The notes beneath the pieces were generated by a model that worked only from the letters and a program-made list of their open reading frames with translations, was not told where the DNA came from and ran no database searches. The translations under genes were made by a program, and so were the position numbers. From Betaproteobacteria bacterium (lineage in GTDB: Bacteria > Pseudomonadota > Gammaproteobacteria > Burkholderiales > Burkholderiaceae_A), in the NCBI GenBank assembly GCA_016868305.1, contig VGHK01000003.1, forward strand, positions 1-64,000: a DNA stretch of 64,000 bases, read 5' to 3'. Positions 12,363-20,069 of the stretch are shown here, piece by piece (position 1 is the first letter of the stretch; each line of letters starts with the position of its first letter).

Positions 12363-12468
12363 AACTGGCTCCTGTGTGTATCGTTGTAAGTAACTGCGCA
12401 ACGTATCACAGTGCCATGTACGCGTGCGGATCCCTATCGGGAGTTTTACCAATAAGAGGAAGATAAGA

Positions 12469-12771
12469 ATGAACCTTGCGCATGACCTGACCACCGCAGA
12501 TAGCCCTATGAGCTTTGAGGCCTATGAGGCTTTTATTGCCCCTATTCGTGCCCGGTACGAGCGTACCCAGCGGCTCTTTGGGGGCGTCTTTTTCTTGTTG
12601 TTTATCGCGGCATGCGCCGCGCTGTATTTTGAAGAGGTCAGCCAGGGGCTGCTTTTTGGGCTTATCTCGATCTACTTTTTGGTGCGTTCCACAGAAGCCT
12701 CTCTGGCCATGGATGTGCTTGATGGCCAGAGGGTTGCTCTTTTGGTGCATCGACCCGATGCCTCAGGGTAA
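12469..12771 (+). CDS. Small membrane protein, unknown
   Basis: About 100 aa with two hydrophobic segments; ORF track opens at 12424. Confidence 0.45.
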   Translation: MNLAHDLTTADSPMSFEAYEAFIAPIRARYERTQRLFGGVFFLLFIAACAALYFEEVSQGLLFGLISIYFLVRSTEASLAMDVLDGQRVALLVHRPDASG

Positions 12772-12820: not shown

Positions 12821-13369
12821 TTAGTCCCCCTGAAGGCTGCGCAGTCGATTCAGTGCGTCTTGGTTCCGGCGTCGACGACGTTCATGCTGCTGGCGCTCGG
12901 CGGGCTGCGAGGCTTTCGCGGTTGGTTCGGCAGTTTCGGGCTGCCCCTTATGCGTTGAGGGTGGCGCAGCAGGCGCACTCATGGCAATGGCCTGTTGGGG
13001 CGGTGTTGGCACCTGATCGGTGGGGGCCGAAGGCGCAGCTGACTGGTCTTGAGCTTCCAGATCCGGAAGGTCATCGGCCAGGGCGCCTTTGGGCAGGCCG
13101 ATGGGATTGAGGATTTTCGAAGACGTGCGGTCTCGGCTGTAGTGCACAGGCACTTTGGGCGCGGTCTTCATTCGGCGTGCGGAGGGCGCGCCCGCTCCGA
13201 CACCTGCTTGGGTCGGCGGTGCAGGGTCAGGCTGCCCGAGCCGCATCACCGACTCGGCGTCGAGCAGTCGAGGGGTCCATCCACGAGGGGGGGCTGCCAG
13301 ACTGTCTGCGCCCATAGAGAGCCGCAACTGGTTGAGGCCAGGGTGGTCCAGAAAGTTGCTGAGCTTCAT
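12821..13369 (-). CDS. Pro/Ala-rich, largely disordered protein; last gene of ZorAB-like/vWA-PP2C-kinase operon
   Basis: 182 aa, structured-looking N-terminus 'MKLSNFLDHPGLNQLRLSMGADSL', low-complexity middle, Arg-rich C-terminus; 9 nt after the ZorB-like gene. Confidence 0.6.
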   Translation of the reverse strand: MKLSNFLDHPGLNQLRLSMGADSLAAPPRGWTPRLLDAESVMRLGQPDPAPPTQAGVGAGAPSARRMKTAPKVPVHYSRDRTSSKILNPIGLPKGALADDLPDLEAQDQSAAPSAPTDQVPTPPQQAIAMSAPAAPPSTHKGQPETAEPTAKASQPAERQQHERRRRRNQDALNRLRSLQGD

Positions 13370-13378
13370 CGCGCGGTA

Positions 13379-14074
13379 TCAGTATGCGGGGGCTGCGATG
13401 GACCGTGCGATCTTCGCCAGCCGCTCATCCGCATTGGTAACGATTCGAAATTCCACCCGCTGCGAGGCCGCCTCGTCAATACGTTGTCCCTGGCTCAAGA
13501 TGGGCCGCGATGAGGAAAGGCCATTGGCGGTCAGGCGCTCAATAAGCCAGGCCTCTTGAGCCCTCGCGCTGGGCAGCTGCATGACATATTCCAATGTGGA
13601 GCGCGTTCGCGCCTGAGACAGGGCCATGTTCTTAAAATAGGCATCTAGCCGGGATGGCGCGGCAGACCAGAAGGTGGAGGTATGTCCTTCGATGCGAACC
13701 TCTTTCACCGTATCAATGAACTTCTCGTTGGTAAGAATTGCGAGATAGCGGGGAATGAAGTCTTTCAGGATGTTCTGAAAGAGCGGCCTGAGCTGGTCGG
13801 ATCCGGTACTGAAGAGAACTTCAGGATTCTTAAATCGGATTGTCATATCTCCCAGAAGCTCTGCATCCCATTCCTGAAAGTTTTCGGCAAACTCGCTCTG
13901 CAGGGCACGGTGCAGGTCTTCCCGCGTGATTTCATACTCTTTGACGATAAGGGTAGTGGTCTGCTCAACCCGCGTCATGTAGAGGGCCGCCAGCAGCAGA
14001 AAGACCATCATCAGGCCCATCATGAGGTCGCTTAGCGGAATCCAGTGGCTGTTGTTACCGGAGCTGTCTGACAT
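13379..14074 (-). CDS. MotB/OmpA-domain stator protein, ZorB-like
   Basis: 231 aa, 'WIPLSDLMMGLMMVFLLLAALYM' single TM with conserved Asp, then an OmpA-like periplasmic domain ('VRIEGHTS', 'LSQARTRSTLEYV'). Confidence 0.85.
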   Translation of the reverse strand: MSDSSGNNSHWIPLSDLMMGLMMVFLLLAALYMTRVEQTTTLIVKEYEITREDLHRALQSEFAENFQEWDAELLGDMTIRFKNPEVLFSTGSDQLRPLFQNILKDFIPRYLAILTNEKFIDTVKEVRIEGHTSTFWSAAPSRLDAYFKNMALSQARTRSTLEYVMQLPSARAQEAWLIERLTANGLSSSRPILSQGQRIDEAASQRVEFRIVTNADERLAKIARSIAAPAY

Positions 14075-14149
14075 ACCAGGGGGCCTGAGGGGGTGCTCTT
14101 ATGGGAGAGTCTGGGAAGGGGGCTGCGGGGCTATGGCGTCTGAGGGCGC

Positions 14150-15511
14150 TTAGATTTTCCGAGCCATCTGCACCACCTCGCGTAGCCGCTCGGTAAGGGG
14201 CAGGTAGTCTTCTACAAACCGGTTGCTAAGCGCAGCAAGCTGACCCGCCAGAGCCTCCAGGGCGTCGTTAAGCTCTTTTTGCAGGCCCTTATCGAGCGCT
14301 AACACCCCTTCTTTGATGACACGGGCATTGTCCTGCAGGCCTTTTTTGAGTTCGTCCTGGGCCTGGCTGATGACTTCGCTGATCTGCTTTCGGAAGTCTG
14401 CCTGGCTGAGCTGCATCTGCACCCCAAGGTTCTCCGTGGCCCTTGCCATGGCCTGCTGCACGCGGGCGAGCTCCTCTTCCTGGGTCTTTGCGGTGCTGGC
14501 GACAATCCCACGCAGCTCTTGGTTGGCACCCAGAATCTCACCGGCCATTTCGTCAGAGACTGCGATGATCTTGTCTCGGATCTGACCAAGGCCTTGTTCC
14601 ACCTGGGTGAGCATCTCACTGGCCTTCTGCGAGAAGGTAGGCGTTACCGCACTCATCTGACCGAGCACATCGGCAAGGGCGCGCTGCTGGGCGAGCAGCA
14701 TGTCGCGGCCATTATTTAAGAACTCGATCTGCTCGGCCAAGGCCTGGGCGACCTTCTCGAATTGTCCAGCACTGGCCACGATGGTCTGCAGCGTGGCCGC
14801 TGCCTGGGCCAGTTCGCCAGCGGCCTCTCGTTGGCGCGCCTGCAGCAGGTCGAGCTCGTCTTTGTACTGCTGCTGCCAGACCACGAGGCGCTCCACCGCA
14901 AGGTTGAGCTGTTTGAAGTTGTCGCCGAACTGACTGCTAAGCTTTTCGTTGAAGTCACGAATCACTGATTCGAGCGCCTGAACGATTGCCTTCTGGTTGT
15001 TCTCCACCATGTGGGTGGCAAAGCCCCGGAACTCGGCGATCAGGGCCTCAGACTGGGCGCTTGCCTCTTCACGACCGCCAGAAATCTGGCTGCTGAGGCT
15101 CTGGGGCTCTGGGCCGGTAATCGCCCGGCGCAGACCCTGCAGGGCCACGACCACATCGTTGAGACTGGCGTTTCCGGCGGGGCCGTCTTCTTCTTCTTCG
15201 ATCTCTTGGCGCACCTTACGAAACCGCTGGGCAAATCGCAGCGTGAGGGCGCCGAAGACGCCTGCGAGCGAGGCCCAGAATGCGGTACGGATGCCCCCCA
15301 GAAGGCTAGGCACACTAGACTGAATGTCGTTGGGGTTAAAGCCGAAGAGTGCCACGGTGATTCCGGTAAAGCAGCCGAGAATGCCCATGGTGGTAAGCAC
15401 CTCGGGGCCATGGACTACGCTGAACCGGTCGAACCGAATATGAAAGAAGAGGGTCACCAGAGCAATGCTGGCGATAAAGAGAATCTCGAGAAGCAGGGTG
15501 ACATTGGTCAT
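14150..15511 (-). CDS. MotA/TolQ/ExbB-like channel protein with long coiled-coil tail, ZorA-like
   Basis: 453 aa; three TM segments in the first ~105 residues ('GPEVLTTMGILGCFTGITVALFGF', 'LLGGIRTAFWASLAGVFGALTLRF'), then ~340 residues of heptad-like helix. Confidence 0.85.
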   Translation of the reverse strand: MTNVTLLLEILFIASIALVTLFFHIRFDRFSVVHGPEVLTTMGILGCFTGITVALFGFNPNDIQSSVPSLLGGIRTAFWASLAGVFGALTLRFAQRFRKVRQEIEEEEDGPAGNASLNDVVVALQGLRRAITGPEPQSLSSQISGGREEASAQSEALIAEFRGFATHMVENNQKAIVQALESVIRDFNEKLSSQFGDNFKQLNLAVERLVVWQQQYKDELDLLQARQREAAGELAQAAATLQTIVASAGQFEKVAQALAEQIEFLNNGRDMLLAQQRALADVLGQMSAVTPTFSQKASEMLTQVEQGLGQIRDKIIAVSDEMAGEILGANQELRGIVASTAKTQEEELARVQQAMARATENLGVQMQLSQADFRKQISEVISQAQDELKKGLQDNARVIKEGVLALDKGLQKELNDALEALAGQLAALSNRFVEDYLPLTERLREVVQMARKI

Positions 15512-15578
15512 GAGACGAAGCCTAGAGGATTGTTACGTGTCCGCCAAGAAGTATGCACGCGCATGCCCAGTCTACCCT

Positions 15579-17105
15579 TTAGGAACGTTTGATCTGCGCG
15601 AGGATCTGCTGGTTGCGATGTCGGGGCAGCCGGGTGGAGATAGCCCGCGTCTTAAGCCTTTGTTTGGCAGCCTGGTTATTGCCGGCAAGCCGGAAACGCG
15701 CCTCCTCCACGGGTATGCGGTGGATCTGCGCGGGGCTATTGACCACCAGGCTCGCCTCCCCGATACCCTGGGAGAAAGAAGGGTGCGAGAGATACTGAAT
15801 CGGCTGAACCACCTCGGTCACTGCCACCCACTGCCCCACCCAGGCATAGTTCGGTAAGAGCCTGCTATCGAGTCCAGGGGTTTCGAGGAGTTCCGGCAGA
15901 ATCTTCACCCGCACCACATTACCACTGGATAGCGCCTGGAAGTCGATGTAGATATAAGGCCGCAAGGCAAGCTCCAATCCGAACCGGGTCTTTCCGGCGC
16001 GCACCTCTACCACCTGGCCAATGAGTTCGACTCGCCGACCAACAAGCCGTGCCACCTTGGGGAAGCTTGCTGCGGCAACCACTTCAAATGATCCCAGGTA
16101 GACCTTCGGGGGTGGGGGCAGGGCCGATCGGGAGACAGCCTGCTCAGCGCTGTTAGGCTTGACAGGGCGGGCCGCAGCCAGATCTTTGACGGGGACATTT
16201 CCCCGATAAAAGTCCTCTGCGCGCGGTACCCGATCGATGGGGGCCATGCAGATGAGGGCGAACTGTTTGACTGGCACGCTCAGACTGGCAACCCGCGCGG
16301 CCATGCCGAACGTCTGTGAGGCAAGGGGGTCGGCAAAGTCGGTTCCGCGAAAGACCAGGCCCTCTTCATCGCTATAGGTGCGGTCGTAGATCTCGGGTAG
16401 AGCCTCCAGTAGGCGCAAAGACAGATCGAGCACAATGAAGGCAAAGTCGTCGAGGCGAAGGTTAAAAAAGCTTTCGTTACGCAGCGGATGCTGAAAGTTC
16501 ACATGCCCAAGCTCAGAGGCCTTTAGACTTGAGAGTTGGGGAACAAACATACCGTCATAGTCGATAAGGGTGAGGCTATCGGCCTCGGGGCTCACCAGTA
16601 TGTTTCCGAGCTGTATATCGCCATGGGCAATCTCAAGCCTGCGCAGGTCTGCGCAGAGGTCTCGCAGGGATAGCCGCAGCTGCCGGAGTTTGAGCGTATG
16701 TTTGTGATGAACAGCCAGATAGTCTCCCAGGGTCTGGCCTTTGGCCCAGGCCATCTTTAACAATGGCACCCGGTTGCCCTCCACCAGCATACCTCCGGGT
16801 TCGTAGTCAAAGGCCACGAAGGTCTCTCTTCCCAGGGTGCGGTTTGCCGCATGGGTTGCCTTTGCAATGGCGCTGTAGCGCTGTTCAATCTCTTTGGAAA
16901 CCCGCGTGAAGCAGCGCAATGCCAGGGCCTTGCCATGGGCCGTTGCCTTAAACACCAGTGCGAAGTTACCCGAACGTGCCCGTGGCATGCCCAGGGCGTT
17001 GGTCTCAATCTTTGCCTGATGTAGATCGGGGTCTGCGAATACCTGACGCGGTGGCTGCTGCAGCGCGCGCAGGTACTGCTCTAGGTTGGGCAGGGTGAGA
17101 GCCAT
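15579..17105 (-). CDS. Divergent protein kinase with C-terminal OB-fold-like region
   Basis: 508 aa; 'HGDIQLGNILV' catalytic loop and 'LIDYDGMFVPQL' metal-binding segment; beta3 motif 'LALRCF'. Confidence 0.85.
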   Translation of the reverse strand: MALTLPNLEQYLRALQQPPRQVFADPDLHQAKIETNALGMPRARSGNFALVFKATAHGKALALRCFTRVSKEIEQRYSAIAKATHAANRTLGRETFVAFDYEPGGMLVEGNRVPLLKMAWAKGQTLGDYLAVHHKHTLKLRQLRLSLRDLCADLRRLEIAHGDIQLGNILVSPEADSLTLIDYDGMFVPQLSSLKASELGHVNFQHPLRNESFFNLRLDDFAFIVLDLSLRLLEALPEIYDRTYSDEEGLVFRGTDFADPLASQTFGMAARVASLSVPVKQFALICMAPIDRVPRAEDFYRGNVPVKDLAAARPVKPNSAEQAVSRSALPPPPKVYLGSFEVVAAASFPKVARLVGRRVELIGQVVEVRAGKTRFGLELALRPYIYIDFQALSSGNVVRVKILPELLETPGLDSRLLPNYAWVGQWVAVTEVVQPIQYLSHPSFSQGIGEASLVVNSPAQIHRIPVEEARFRLAGNNQAAKQRLKTRAISTRLPRHRNQQILAQIKRS

Positions 17106-17851
17106 TATCCGAGGTCTACGATAGCCAGGGTGGTATCGTCTTTGCGCATCTTCCCTTGCAATCGCGACTGGGTGATCCAGTAGCGAAAATCGTTCTCAGG
17201 GAGGTTTAATGCCTTTTCACACTGCGTCCATTCTCCCGCTATGGCAAGCTCCAGGGCATAGCAGCCCAGGGCATCGGTCATGAGGAACATCCGCTGTCCC
17301 AGGACTTCGCTTTTGGGCAGTCGTCTGACCGACCAACGGCTGCGCTCCCGTTCAAAGACCACACTGTCGCCGCGTGCATCGGAAGACAAAAGCACCGGGT
17401 GCTTTTTGAATTCATCCGGGGTCTGCAGCACATGACTCTGAATCTGGCCCCGGGGATCCTTCCAAAGCGCCACGGTGTCTCCAATGCCAAGGACCAGAAC
17501 GTCTGGGCCGGCATCGACCAGACCGAGAATACTGGAGAAATTGCCCCTATCGAAGGCTGCCTGCTGCGACCAGGACAGCTTCCTCTGGGCAACGATTCCC
17601 AGAAACATTGTGCGCGCCTGTATAACGATGCTGCGAATGGCGGTGTCGTTAAGCGCAGGTGTTGGAGTCTGGGAGAAGGTCTGGGTAAAGACCTGACAGA
17701 GCAGCCTTCCCCAGGTACGCGAATCAAACGATTCGCTGGCGCCATCGCTCATGGCACATGCAAACCCTTCCGTCGTCCAGAAAAAGAAGTCATCGTTGGC
17801 GTCGGGGTAATCGGGATCCTTCGGGAAGGAGAGGCTTCGAACTACCCGCAT
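17105..17851 (-). CDS. PP2C-family protein phosphatase
   Basis: 248 aa; 'DANDDFFFW', 'FACAMSDGASESFDSRTWGRLL', 'GIGDTVALW', 'RKDDTTLAIVDLG'; 1-nt overlap with the kinase gene. Confidence 0.85.
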   Translation of the reverse strand: MRVVRSLSFPKDPDYPDANDDFFFWTTEGFACAMSDGASESFDSRTWGRLLCQVFTQTFSQTPTPALNDTAIRSIVIQARTMFLGIVAQRKLSWSQQAAFDRGNFSSILGLVDAGPDVLVLGIGDTVALWKDPRGQIQSHVLQTPDEFKKHPVLLSSDARGDSVVFERERSRWSVRRLPKSEVLGQRMFLMTDALGCYALELAIAGEWTQCEKALNLPENDFRYWITQSRLQGKMRKDDTTLAIVDLG

Positions 17852-17857
17852 AGAGAC

Positions 17858-18706
17858 TTAACGCAGCATCAGGGATTGCGAAGAGGCTCGGGTGCCAATA
17901 TCGAAAAATTCCACTACCTCGACTGGCTCGACGTTGAAAAAAAAGCCCCGGGCATGGGGTGACACCTGATAGCCCTTTTCCCTGGCGGCCTGGGCAACCG
18001 CAGCGGGAAGCTCGCTCGACATGCGAAACAAGCTCTTGCCGTAAGGGTCGATTACATGGTTTTCATCGTCTGCAAACTTAAGCGGACTGCCCTTGGCCTG
18101 ACCGCTATGCAGGTTGAACAGCAGGATGTCGCCATCATCGGTACCAATCTGTCGCAGCTGCTCTGCCACCGGCTCTGGGTCGCCATCGGAGGGCTCGCCA
18201 TCGGTGACATGCAAGACCGTGGGGGGATAAGACTCGGCATGCTCATCGCACCAGACCGCTAGAGACTCCGCAGCGATACGGAGCGCCTTGCGCATAGGGG
18301 TGCCGCCATCGGCCTGGGGCGTAAACCAGATCGGAAACTGAATGGTCTGTTCGATAACTCCGCCCGCGCCGTCGGGAACCTTCTGTCGCCTTTGCTCAAT
18401 CGAAATCGGACTCTTCTCAAAGTCAGAAATCGGGTGAAACATTTTTGATGCAAAGGGGCCTTTCAAGGCATTTCCTACCTGTGCCCCCCCGTAGCCAATG
18501 GCACCGATTTCAAAGTAGTCGCGAACGCCCTCAGACTTTGAGCAACGGGCAATGAGGTTGACCACCACCCGGTTTAAGGCGTCGCTGACAAACTGGGCGC
18601 GCGACATCTTGGTCTGGCCTACAGGGTCTGCCATGGACCCAGACTGGTCTATGAGGAATAAAAACGCCGTAGGACTGGTACGACTAATTTCGGCGCTGTA
18701 GCTCAT
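17858..18706 (-). CDS. vWA domain protein (TerY-like)
   Basis: 282 aa; intact MIDAS: 'LIDQSGSM', 'DGGTPM', 'VTDGEPSDGD'. Confidence 0.9.
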   Translation of the reverse strand: MSYSAEISRTSPTAFLFLIDQSGSMADPVGQTKMSRAQFVSDALNRVVVNLIARCSKSEGVRDYFEIGAIGYGGAQVGNALKGPFASKMFHPISDFEKSPISIEQRRQKVPDGAGGVIEQTIQFPIWFTPQADGGTPMRKALRIAAESLAVWCDEHAESYPPTVLHVTDGEPSDGDPEPVAEQLRQIGTDDGDILLFNLHSGQAKGSPLKFADDENHVIDPYGKSLFRMSSELPAAVAQAAREKGYQVSPHARGFFFNVEPVEVVEFFDIGTRASSQSLMLR

Positions 18707-18723
18707 GGCAGTTCTCCTAAAGA

Positions 18724-19587
18724 TTATTTCTTAAATGTCTCACGCAGACTTTCCGAAATCGCCTTCGCGCGCTCCTCCATGCTGTCACAGTTCGCGGTGA
18801 GGGTGACCTCAGGCTTTACAGGAATCGAGCCCGTGTCGTAGTGGAAGTCTGGAAACCGGGCATTGGCGAGAAGCTTGATGCGCTGATTGGGCAGTGCCTG
18901 AAGGCTGGCCTTGCCATCGGCGAATTCCGCGGTTGGCCCGTCTGGCATCACCTTTGCCATGAATGCGCGCTCGTGAAAGGGGCATTCATTAATGAGGGTG
19001 ACCGAGACCCTGATGGGCTGGGGCGGGGCGACAACCTTCGAGAACAGGCCGATTGCTGCCTTGGCAGGCTCTGTTTCCAATAGACGCGTGAGGTTAAATC
19101 CCAGCCAGATGACGGCGACGGTTGCTGAGACTGCGCCTAAGGCTATCCCCCAGTTGCGAAGGCGGGTAACCGGATCGGAGGGCTCCTCAGGCGGTACCCA
19201 GAGTACCTTTGCCCTGCGCGGTGCATCCTCGTCTTCCAGGGGTGGGCTAAGCGGCGCACCGCCTGCCATGGGGTTGGCATCGTAGGGCGGCGCAGGGTAG
19301 GGGTCCCAAAGGTCTTCTCCAGCACTCGGGCCGCTCGTACTAGCCGCGGTTTTAGACCCTTCGTTGTCTGCCTCGGGAGGCTCAAACCAGTCGGCGCCCC
19401 GGGCAGACTGGGATGCCCTTGGCTTTTTGGTCGCACCCGGTGGAAGCGCCTGCGGCGGGATGGGGGGAAGATCGGGCTGAGATGCTACCGGGCCAGAGGT
19501 GGCCGCCGCGGGCGCGCCGGGCACGACGGGAACGGCAGACTCTTGTTCCGCAGCAATCTCTTCCAGGCTTCTTGGTTTGATTACCAT
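18724..19587 (-). CDS. Single-pass membrane protein with Pro-rich cytoplasmic region; first gene of the operon
   Basis: 287 aa; TM 'NWGIALGAVSATVAVIWLGFNL' after a ~140-residue disordered N-terminus; beta-rich extracytoplasmic domain with two Cys. Confidence 0.75.
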   Translation of the reverse strand: MVIKPRSLEEIAAEQESAVPVVPGAPAAATSGPVASQPDLPPIPPQALPPGATKKPRASQSARGADWFEPPEADNEGSKTAASTSGPSAGEDLWDPYPAPPYDANPMAGGAPLSPPLEDEDAPRRAKVLWVPPEEPSDPVTRLRNWGIALGAVSATVAVIWLGFNLTRLLETEPAKAAIGLFSKVVAPPQPIRVSVTLINECPFHERAFMAKVMPDGPTAEFADGKASLQALPNQRIKLLANARFPDFHYDTGSIPVKPEVTLTANCDSMEERAKAISESLRETFKK

Positions 19588-19670
19588 CGCCCAATATTAA
19601 CTGCTTACGACTCAATATCTGCGTACAACTGTCGATGCAAAATTATGGAAAGTTACCCGATTGCCCTGAA

Positions 19671-20069
19671 ATGCTGACGCGATTACGCCTCGCAACCCTT
19701 CTCTTTGTTGGCCTTTTCCTGGCGCCCTTAGGCACGGAGGCTGCCTACCTAATTCTTGAGCGTAACCGGTATAAGGTTGCCTACGTGGATCTTGCCACCG
19801 TTCAGGTAACCGAAAAGGGCCGAAAGTTTCTCGTGATTCACGACTTTTTAAACCCTGACCTGCTCGGTCACATGTCCCGGCGGCATGTGGAGGAGATTGA
19901 CTGTCTGGGAAAGCGTGCGCGCACGGTGGCCTATGCCTTGTTTACTGGCAAACGCGGAACGGGCAGGTCAAGCCTGGGCGAGGCCGGGGGCGAGACCACC
20001 CCCTGGAAGCCGATTCGTGGCAAGCAGGACCCTATGGAAGTCGCCCGTGCCCGTTTGTGCCCGGTCTAA
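19671..20069 (+). CDS. Exported protein, surface-adhesin protein E-like
   Basis: Signal peptide; 'YKVAYVDLATVQVTEKGRKFLVIHDF', 'EEIDCLGKRARTVAYALFTGKRGTG', 'WKPI' pattern. Confidence 0.55.
   Translation: MLTRLRLATLLFVGLFLAPLGTEAAYLILERNRYKVAYVDLATVQVTEKGRKFLVIHDFLNPDLLGHMSRRHVEEIDCLGKRARTVAYALFTGKRGTGRSSLGEAGGETTPWKPIRGKQDPMEVARARLCPV

What the first reader, a model, noticed from the sequence alone, without database searches (positions are those of the whole stretch)
12821..19587. Candidate new system: ZorAB-like ion-driven motor fused in one operon with a vWA-PP2C-kinase signalling triad
Seen: seven co-directional minus-strand genes with gaps of 1-nt overlap to about 75 bp: TM protein, vWA (intact MIDAS), PP2C, kinase, MotA/ZorA-like with coiled-coil tail, MotB/OmpA-like with a SDLMxGLMMVFL helix, small disordered protein. 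Established: Zorya anti-phage systems pair ZorA/ZorB motors with cytoplasmic effectors (ZorC/D, ZorE and others), and vWA-PP2C-STK triads are described as TerY-P modules. Inference: here a phospho-signalling triad replaces the nuclease/helicase effectors, so an envelope-anchored motor would be coupled to kinase/phosphatase control. That could be anti-phage defence or an envelope-stress sensor; the sequence alone does not decide.
Basis: partly seen in the sequence, partly recalled or inferred. Interest (0 to 1): 0.9.

Follow-up and report, generated by a model that had tools for sequence, protein, structure and literature searches.

The report
Zorya motor joined to phospho-signalling defence
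In some aquatic bacteria, a membrane motor that elsewhere brings a DNA-cutting enzyme to the site of phage attack is instead encoded in one operon with a separate kinase-phosphatase phage-defence module, apparently linked by a short protein that keeps the cutting enzyme's attachment end but has lost its blade.

Summary
The seven-gene operon is real. Its two halves are both known: ZorA/ZorB sit inside the Zorya type II clade (best solved relative 8vvi), and vWA-PP2C-kinase is the OB-fold TerY-P triad, already a tested stand-alone anti-phage system. What I found no description of is the combination. ZorA-ZorB-tail behaves as one three-gene module. In the host family (26 genomes) it occurs in 7, always with the triad, while the triad also occurs alone, including at the same chromosomal site in sister species. 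The 'small disordered protein' is the key piece. Its first ~22 residues are homologous to the N-terminus of ZorE, the nuclease that ZorAB recruits, but no nuclease follows and the genome has no ZorE. I infer that a ZorE remnant now acts as an adaptor coupling the envelope motor to kinase/phosphatase signalling. A second, independent ZorAB + TerY-P operon exists in Obscuribacterales-related genomes with type-I-like ZorAB. The upstream TM gene belongs to the local operon but not to the motor link. Defence is the most likely function; activity and physical contact are untested.

The parts
12821..13369 (-). tail protein, 182 aa: ZorE-type N-terminal segment followed by a disordered region, no nuclease
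   Evidence: seven homologues in the same position after zorB; N-terminal homology to ZorE
13295..13369 (-). codons 1-25 of tail, MKLSNFLDHPGLNQLRLSMGADSLA: putative ZorAB-docking segment
   Evidence: hhalign to ZorE N-termini E=2e-6, in register; reverse HMM 17.5 bits, best non-ZorE hit among 9452 ORFs
12842..12865 (-). C-terminal motif NQDALNRL in tail, resembles the kinase C-terminal motif NQQILAQI
   Evidence: shuffle frequency 0.003 for the last 20 residues of this tail; present in 3 of 7 tails; suggestive only
13379..14074 (-). zorB-like: MotB/OmpA protein, TM helix SDLMMGLMMVF with Asp16
   Evidence: PADLOC ZorB2 E=1e-89; PDB 8vvi_A E=6.5e-66; tree
14150..15511 (-). zorA-like: MotA/ExbB channel part plus long coiled-coil tail
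   Evidence: PADLOC ZorA2 E=2e-129; PDB 8vvi_F E=4e-79
14171..14311 (-). conserved C-terminal end of the ZorA rod (residues 401-447)
   Evidence: conserved between triad-linked and ZorE-linked ZorA while the preceding coiled coil is not
15579..17105 (-). TerY-P kinase: kinase domain (about 1-310), OB-type region (about 340-465), C-terminal helix with NQQILAQI
   Evidence: PADLOC STK_OB E=2e-127; AlphaFold2 model pLDDT 87; kinase fold matches
17105..17851 (-). TerY-P PP2C phosphatase
   Evidence: Pfam PP2C_2 35.7 bits; PADLOC PP2C E=2e-46; active-site Asp residues invariant
17858..18706 (-). TerY-like vWA protein with intact MIDAS (D20-x-S22-x-S24, T136, D169)
   Evidence: PADLOC TerY E=9e-125; residues invariant in relatives
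18724..19587 (-). TM protein: disordered cytoplasmic part, one TM helix, small presumed periplasmic domain. Member of the local operon, not of the motor link
   Evidence: homologues precede triads without ZorAB in G004 and G005 (and a contig-end triad in G006); other paralogues lie away from any triad
12424..12771 (+). convergent small membrane gene marking the downstream edge of the ZorA-ZorB-tail module
   Evidence: a homologue directly follows the kinase in G004 (L176) and G005 (L180), which lack ZorAB

Best explanation
This is a composite anti-phage (envelope-breach) defence operon. A Zorya-II-type ZorAB motor (5:2 in solved relatives), anchored in inner membrane and peptidoglycan, senses a disturbed envelope and, as in Zorya II, changes the state of its ZorA cytoplasmic rod. 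In Zorya II the rod recruits the nickase ZorE. Here the nuclease is gone and only ZorE's N-terminal segment survives, as the head of a short disordered adaptor (the tail protein). The adaptor brings the resident TerY-P triad (vWA, PP2C, OB-fold kinase) to the activated motor, or is itself its phosphorylation target, so ion-driven sensing is read out as a kinase/phosphatase switch rather than as DNA nicking. Shown here: operon, family membership of the parts, linkage of ZorA-ZorB-tail to the triad, N-terminal homology of tail to ZorE, absence of ZorE, independent recurrence of ZorAB + TerY-P. Inferred: docking to the ZorA rod, adaptor role, direction of signalling, anti-phage function of this copy.
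For: Membership by profile, structure and tree. ZorA-ZorB-tail occurs in 7 of 13 family genomes with a triad and 0 of 13 without (Fisher p=0.005). Same-site comparisons with and without the module: window versus G004 and G005; five g3 genomes versus G014. ZorB and kinase trees agree, and triad-linked ZorB of the family form one clade, sister to a ZorE-bearing ZorB. Tail N-terminus matches ZorE N-terminus in both search directions. The ZorA rod end is conserved between ZorE- and tail-bearing systems. A second nuclease-less protein with the same N-terminus follows ZorB in G437. Independent ZorA-ZorB-vWA-PP2C-kinase operons in three Obscuribacterales-class genomes, one beside HerA and WYL genes. 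Published: ZorAB sends ZorE to the membrane on infection (PMC11890865); TerY-P protects alone (PMC7699616, PMC10889362).
Against: No experiment, and no prediction of tail bound to ZorA or to the triad. The shared segment is only about 22 residues. The C-terminal motif shared with the kinase is in 3 of 7 tails and two of those are close relatives. A further shared tail motif (YSRDxxxxKILxP) is in 5 of 7. Sister species keep the triad without ZorAB, so the triad does not need it. This site lies between parE/parC and a TRAP transporter, not in a defence island. Family genomes are mostly fragmented MAGs.
Confidence: 0.55

Rival explanations
1. Two independent defence systems share an operon. TerY-P works alone, and ZorA-ZorB-tail is a decaying or minimal Zorya II whose nuclease was lost, with no functional contact between them.
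For: TerY-P is a stand-alone system (PMC7699616, PMC10889362); triads persist without ZorAB at the same site; tail is short and variable.
Against: ZorA-ZorB-tail is never found without the triad in the family. All three genes are intact and conserved in seven species, with ZorB 67-75% identical. The N-terminal segment is kept in all tails. ZorAB + TerY-P arose a second time with a different ZorAB type. The G437 locus shows a nuclease-less protein with the same N-terminus outside this family.
Confidence: 0.22
2. Envelope-stress signalling, not defence: the motor reports peptidoglycan or membrane stress to a kinase/phosphatase switch controlling host physiology.
For: Site between housekeeping genes; conserved position in one genus; a TM gene with a presumed periplasmic domain stands next to the triad (the model is poor).
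Against: Patchy distribution with apparent losses; both halves are tested phage-defence systems elsewhere; one Obscuribacterales version lies near HerA and WYL genes.
Confidence: 0.13
3. The tail protein is itself the effector: a disordered protein released, phosphorylated or acting on membrane or DNA when the motor fires, with the triad tuning it.
For: The G437 relative carries a Lys/Ala-rich, histone-H1-like stretch after the same N-terminus; the window tail has a basic C-terminal stretch.
Against: Bodies of the seven tails share little beyond two short motifs, and some tails are only 51-78 aa long.
Confidence: 0.1

Closest known systems
Zorya type II (ZorA2-ZorB2-ZorE)
   Same: ZorA and ZorB family, gene order A-B-third gene, third gene begins with the same N-terminal segment, conserved ZorA rod end
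   Different: no ZorE nuclease in operon or genome; third gene is a short nuclease-less protein; joined to a TerY-P triad in one operon
TerY-P triad with OB-fold kinase (stand-alone system of Gao et al. 2020)
   Same: vWA, PP2C and kinase-OB in the same order with active-site residues kept
   Different: followed by ZorA-ZorB-tail; the kinase lacks the C-terminal membrane anchor seen in many stand-alone members (TM helix in 16 of 31)
TerY-P triads of CoCoNuT type II and III-A systems
   Same: a TerY-P triad used as an add-on to another defence system
   Different: there the kinase has a zinc ribbon and the partner is a McrBC-like system; no motor (PMC11090510)
Zorya type I and type III
   Same: ZorAB motor with swappable cytoplasmic partners; the Obscuribacterales version uses type-I-like ZorA
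   Different: partners are ZorC/ZorD or ZorF/ZorG, not kinase and phosphatase

Membership tests
Zorya type II | ZorA2 and ZorB2 of the type II clade | tested here: met
   diverged, below the NCBIfam cut-offs for ZorA2/ZorB2
Zorya type II | ZorE HNH nickase encoded next to ZorB | tested here: not met
   no ZorE profile hit in the operon or own genome
Zorya type II | third gene with the ZorE N-terminal segment | tested here: met
   necessary but not sufficient
Zorya type II | membrane Asp of ZorB and OmpA-like peptidoglycan domain | tested here: met
   Asp16 invariant; OmpA match (below gathering score) and alignment to 8vvi
Zorya type II | anti-phage activity | not testable with these tools
   needs plaque assays
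Zorya type I or III | ZorC/ZorD or ZorF/ZorG partners | tested here: not met
   no such hits among the seven proteins
TerY-P (OB-fold type) | adjacent vWA, PP2C and kinase-OB genes | tested here: met
TerY-P (OB-fold type) | anti-phage activity | not testable with these tools
   reported for other members in PMC7699616 and PMC10889362
ExbBD/TolQR | ExbD/TolR-type second subunit | tested here: not met
   no ExbD profile hit; OmpA/MotB-type protein instead
CoCoNuT-associated TerY-P | zinc-ribbon kinase with CnuB/CnuC genes | tested here: not met
   kinase ends in an OB-type region; no such genes in the operon

The most novel reading that the evidence does not exclude
ZorAB is a general envelope-breach sensor that reads out through a portable N-terminal docking segment. 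Different lineages plug different outputs into it: ZorE nickase, a kinase/phosphatase/vWA switch (this family), or an H1-like basic protein (G437); a kinase/phosphatase/vWA switch was also joined separately to type-I-like ZorAB in Obscuribacterales. This operon would be the first ion-driven defence motor coupled to protein phosphorylation.
Probability: 0.4. Interest if true: 0.85.

Novelty: new variant of a known kind. Interest (0 to 1): 0.66.

Why it matters
How ZorAB passes a signal from the envelope to its effectors is an open question. Here nature has removed the nuclease and kept about 22 residues of ZorE, and the ZorA rod end is conserved to match. That names a specific peptide and a specific surface to test. 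It also suggests that phospho-signalling can be an output of an ion-driven defence motor, and that two defence systems known separately can be wired in series.

Tried and rejected
Adhesin_E gene (19635-20069) as a component: genes of this broad family also lie beside the triad at the g3 site, but phmmer with the window protein finds no relative there, so not supported. TM protein as a core part: rejected. ExbBD/TolQR identity: rejected. Phage or plasmid carriage: only 2 distant plasmid kinase hits, 1 phage-record ZorB hit at 43%, no relatives in viral contigs. Single-sequence structure of the TM protein: uninformative, pLDDT 53. G009 versus G003 as a same-site pair: region similar but the site is not shown to be identical, so not counted. 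Shared NxxxLxxI motif between kinase and tail: kept as suggestive only, because it is short, chosen after looking, and in 3 of 7 tails. sigma-70 promoter scan: one weak match, below the shuffle mean.

Full report
Observation. Seven minus-strand ORFs run from 19587 to 12821 with gaps of 17, 6, -1, 67, 75 and 9 nt in transcription order. PADLOC profiles identify TerY (vWA, 414 bits), PP2C (156), STK_OB (424), ZorA2 (430) and ZorB2 (298); the first and last genes match nothing. NCBIfam ZorA2/ZorB2 match well below their cut-offs (118.9 of 700 and 193.4 of 400 bits), so these are diverged members, not the E. coli-type proteins. Active-site residues are intact: vWA D20/S22/S24/T136/D169, PP2C D36, D125, D193, D238, D239, kinase H161-G162-D163 and D182, ZorB Asp16.

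What the motor is. The ZorB and ZorA alignments match the solved complex 8vvi at E=6.5e-66 and 4e-79; MotB proteins match only at about 1e-5. I take 8vvi to be the S. kujiense Zorya II complex described in PMC11890865; that link rests on my own knowledge, since the PDB table gives only generic names. In a ZorB tree the seven triad-linked sequences of the family form one clade (98/96) whose sister is Burkholderia multivorans ZorB (100/99), 58% identical to the window's, which is followed by a ZorE (484 bits); both lie among other ZorE-linked ZorBs.

What the triad is. It is the OB-fold TerY-P triad. An AlphaFold2 model of the kinase (mean pLDDT 87) shows a kinase domain and a strand-rich region at about 340-465, and its fold search returns protein kinases; the OB assignment rests on the PADLOC profile. 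Triads of this kind stand alone in many Proteobacteria. They have been tested as anti-phage systems: against T7-like phages (Gao et al. as summarised in PMC7699616) and in P. aeruginosa against Autographiviridae with cell survival (PMC10889362).

Linkage. In the host family (26 genomes held) ZorB of this type occurs in 7 and a triad in 13, counting G003 and G018 whose contigs are cut; every ZorB genome has triad genes next to it (Fisher p=0.005). At the window's own site (parE/parC on one side, TAXI/TRAP transporter on the other) the sister species G004 and G005 have TM-vWA-PP2C-kinase followed directly by the convergent small gene, with no ZorA-ZorB-tail. At the g3 site (DUF502-like gene / PQQ dehydrogenase) five species have the module and G014 does not. 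The kinase tree needs three changes of state, and kinase and ZorB topologies agree, which fits one gain and later losses. In surveys of 400 genomes of the order and 303 of the class, ZorB hits outside the family were followed by ZorE or other genes, and none had a triad within the stretches read.

The tail protein. The seven tails begin with a segment like MK(L/I)xNFLxxxxLNxLRxxMxA. Profile-profile comparison with the N-termini of the three nearest ZorE proteins gives E=2e-6, residues 1-22 against 3-24. A tail profile run over 3985 ORFs has the B. multivorans ZorE N-terminus as its best non-tail hit. The reverse profile run over 9452 ORFs returns, after the ZorEs, the window tail (17.5 bits), an ORF just after ZorB in G437, and the tails of L009, L014 and L011. 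The G437 protein reads MNLPNFVNFEPFNKLRRDMRAS followed by a Lys/Ala-rich stretch, again without nuclease. The own genome has no ZorE. The ZorA rod end (401-440) is much more conserved across 17 ZorAs than residues 301-400, and is shared by tail- and ZorE-bearing systems. Published work shows that ZorAB sends ZorE to the membrane on infection (PMC11890865). I therefore infer that the shared segment docks on ZorAB; this has not been shown.

A possible second contact. The kinases of this triad type carry one or two copies of NxxxLxxI/L/M after the OB region (62 matches against 4.5 expected), and the window tail ends with the same pattern (NQDALNRL, shuffle frequency 0.003 for its last 20 residues; seen in 3 of 7 tails; 3.7% of background genes). 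This would let the tail bind a partner of the kinase, but it is suggestive only. Sixteen of 31 stand-alone kinases end in a TM helix and several others in a short amphipathic WLF-type end; none of the family's kinases do, with or without ZorAB.

Independent recurrence. Three genomes of the Obscuribacterales class carry ZorA-ZorB-vWA-PP2C-kinase, motor genes first, with type-I-like ZorA and a ZorB clade separate from the window's; in G797 the contig ends inside ZorB. In G789 the operon is close to WYL regulators and a HerA helicase gene. Joining ZorAB to TerY-P thus appears to have happened at least twice, which argues for a functional link.

Literature. No held paper was found that describes ZorAB with a kinase/phosphatase triad. 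A paper that names both TerY-P and Zorya treats them as separate systems. The library is incomplete: the Nature Zorya paper was not held, and the original Gao and Anantharaman papers were not read, so an earlier mention is possible.

Verdict. A real composite variant of two known defence systems with a plausible, specific and testable adaptor. Not a categorically new system.

Noticed in passing
window 15579-17105 and alignment A3: The VAIK-type lysine of the TerY-P kinase is Arg in all 36 aligned OB-type kinases (R64), while many other relatives have Lys (79 R, 16 K); the HGD and DYD Asp residues are kept. Whether these kinases are active is open.
   Followed up: partly
L182:5267-5770 (G437): After a ZorB and a 1340-aa ZorA, a nuclease-less protein combines the ZorE-type N-terminus with a histone-H1-like Lys/Ala-rich tail: possibly another ZorAB plug-in.
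   Followed up: partly
L066, L163, L164: Obscuribacterales-class operons join type-I-like ZorAB with a TerY-P triad and, in L066 and L164, two further kinase-like genes.
   Followed up: partly
L018-L056 kinase C-termini: Stand-alone TerY-P kinases often end in a Pro-rich linker plus a TM helix or amphipathic WLF end, suggesting that the known TerY-P system works at the membrane.
   Followed up: partly
window 18724-19587: TM protein with a small presumed periplasmic domain that exists in several unlinked copies in the genus; triad-linked copies share an N-terminal PRSLEEIAxER motif.
   Followed up: partly
window 19635-20069: Divergent Adhesin_E-family gene beside the triad; different Adhesin_E-like genes also sit beside triads at the g3 site.
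   Followed up: partly
   Followed up: no
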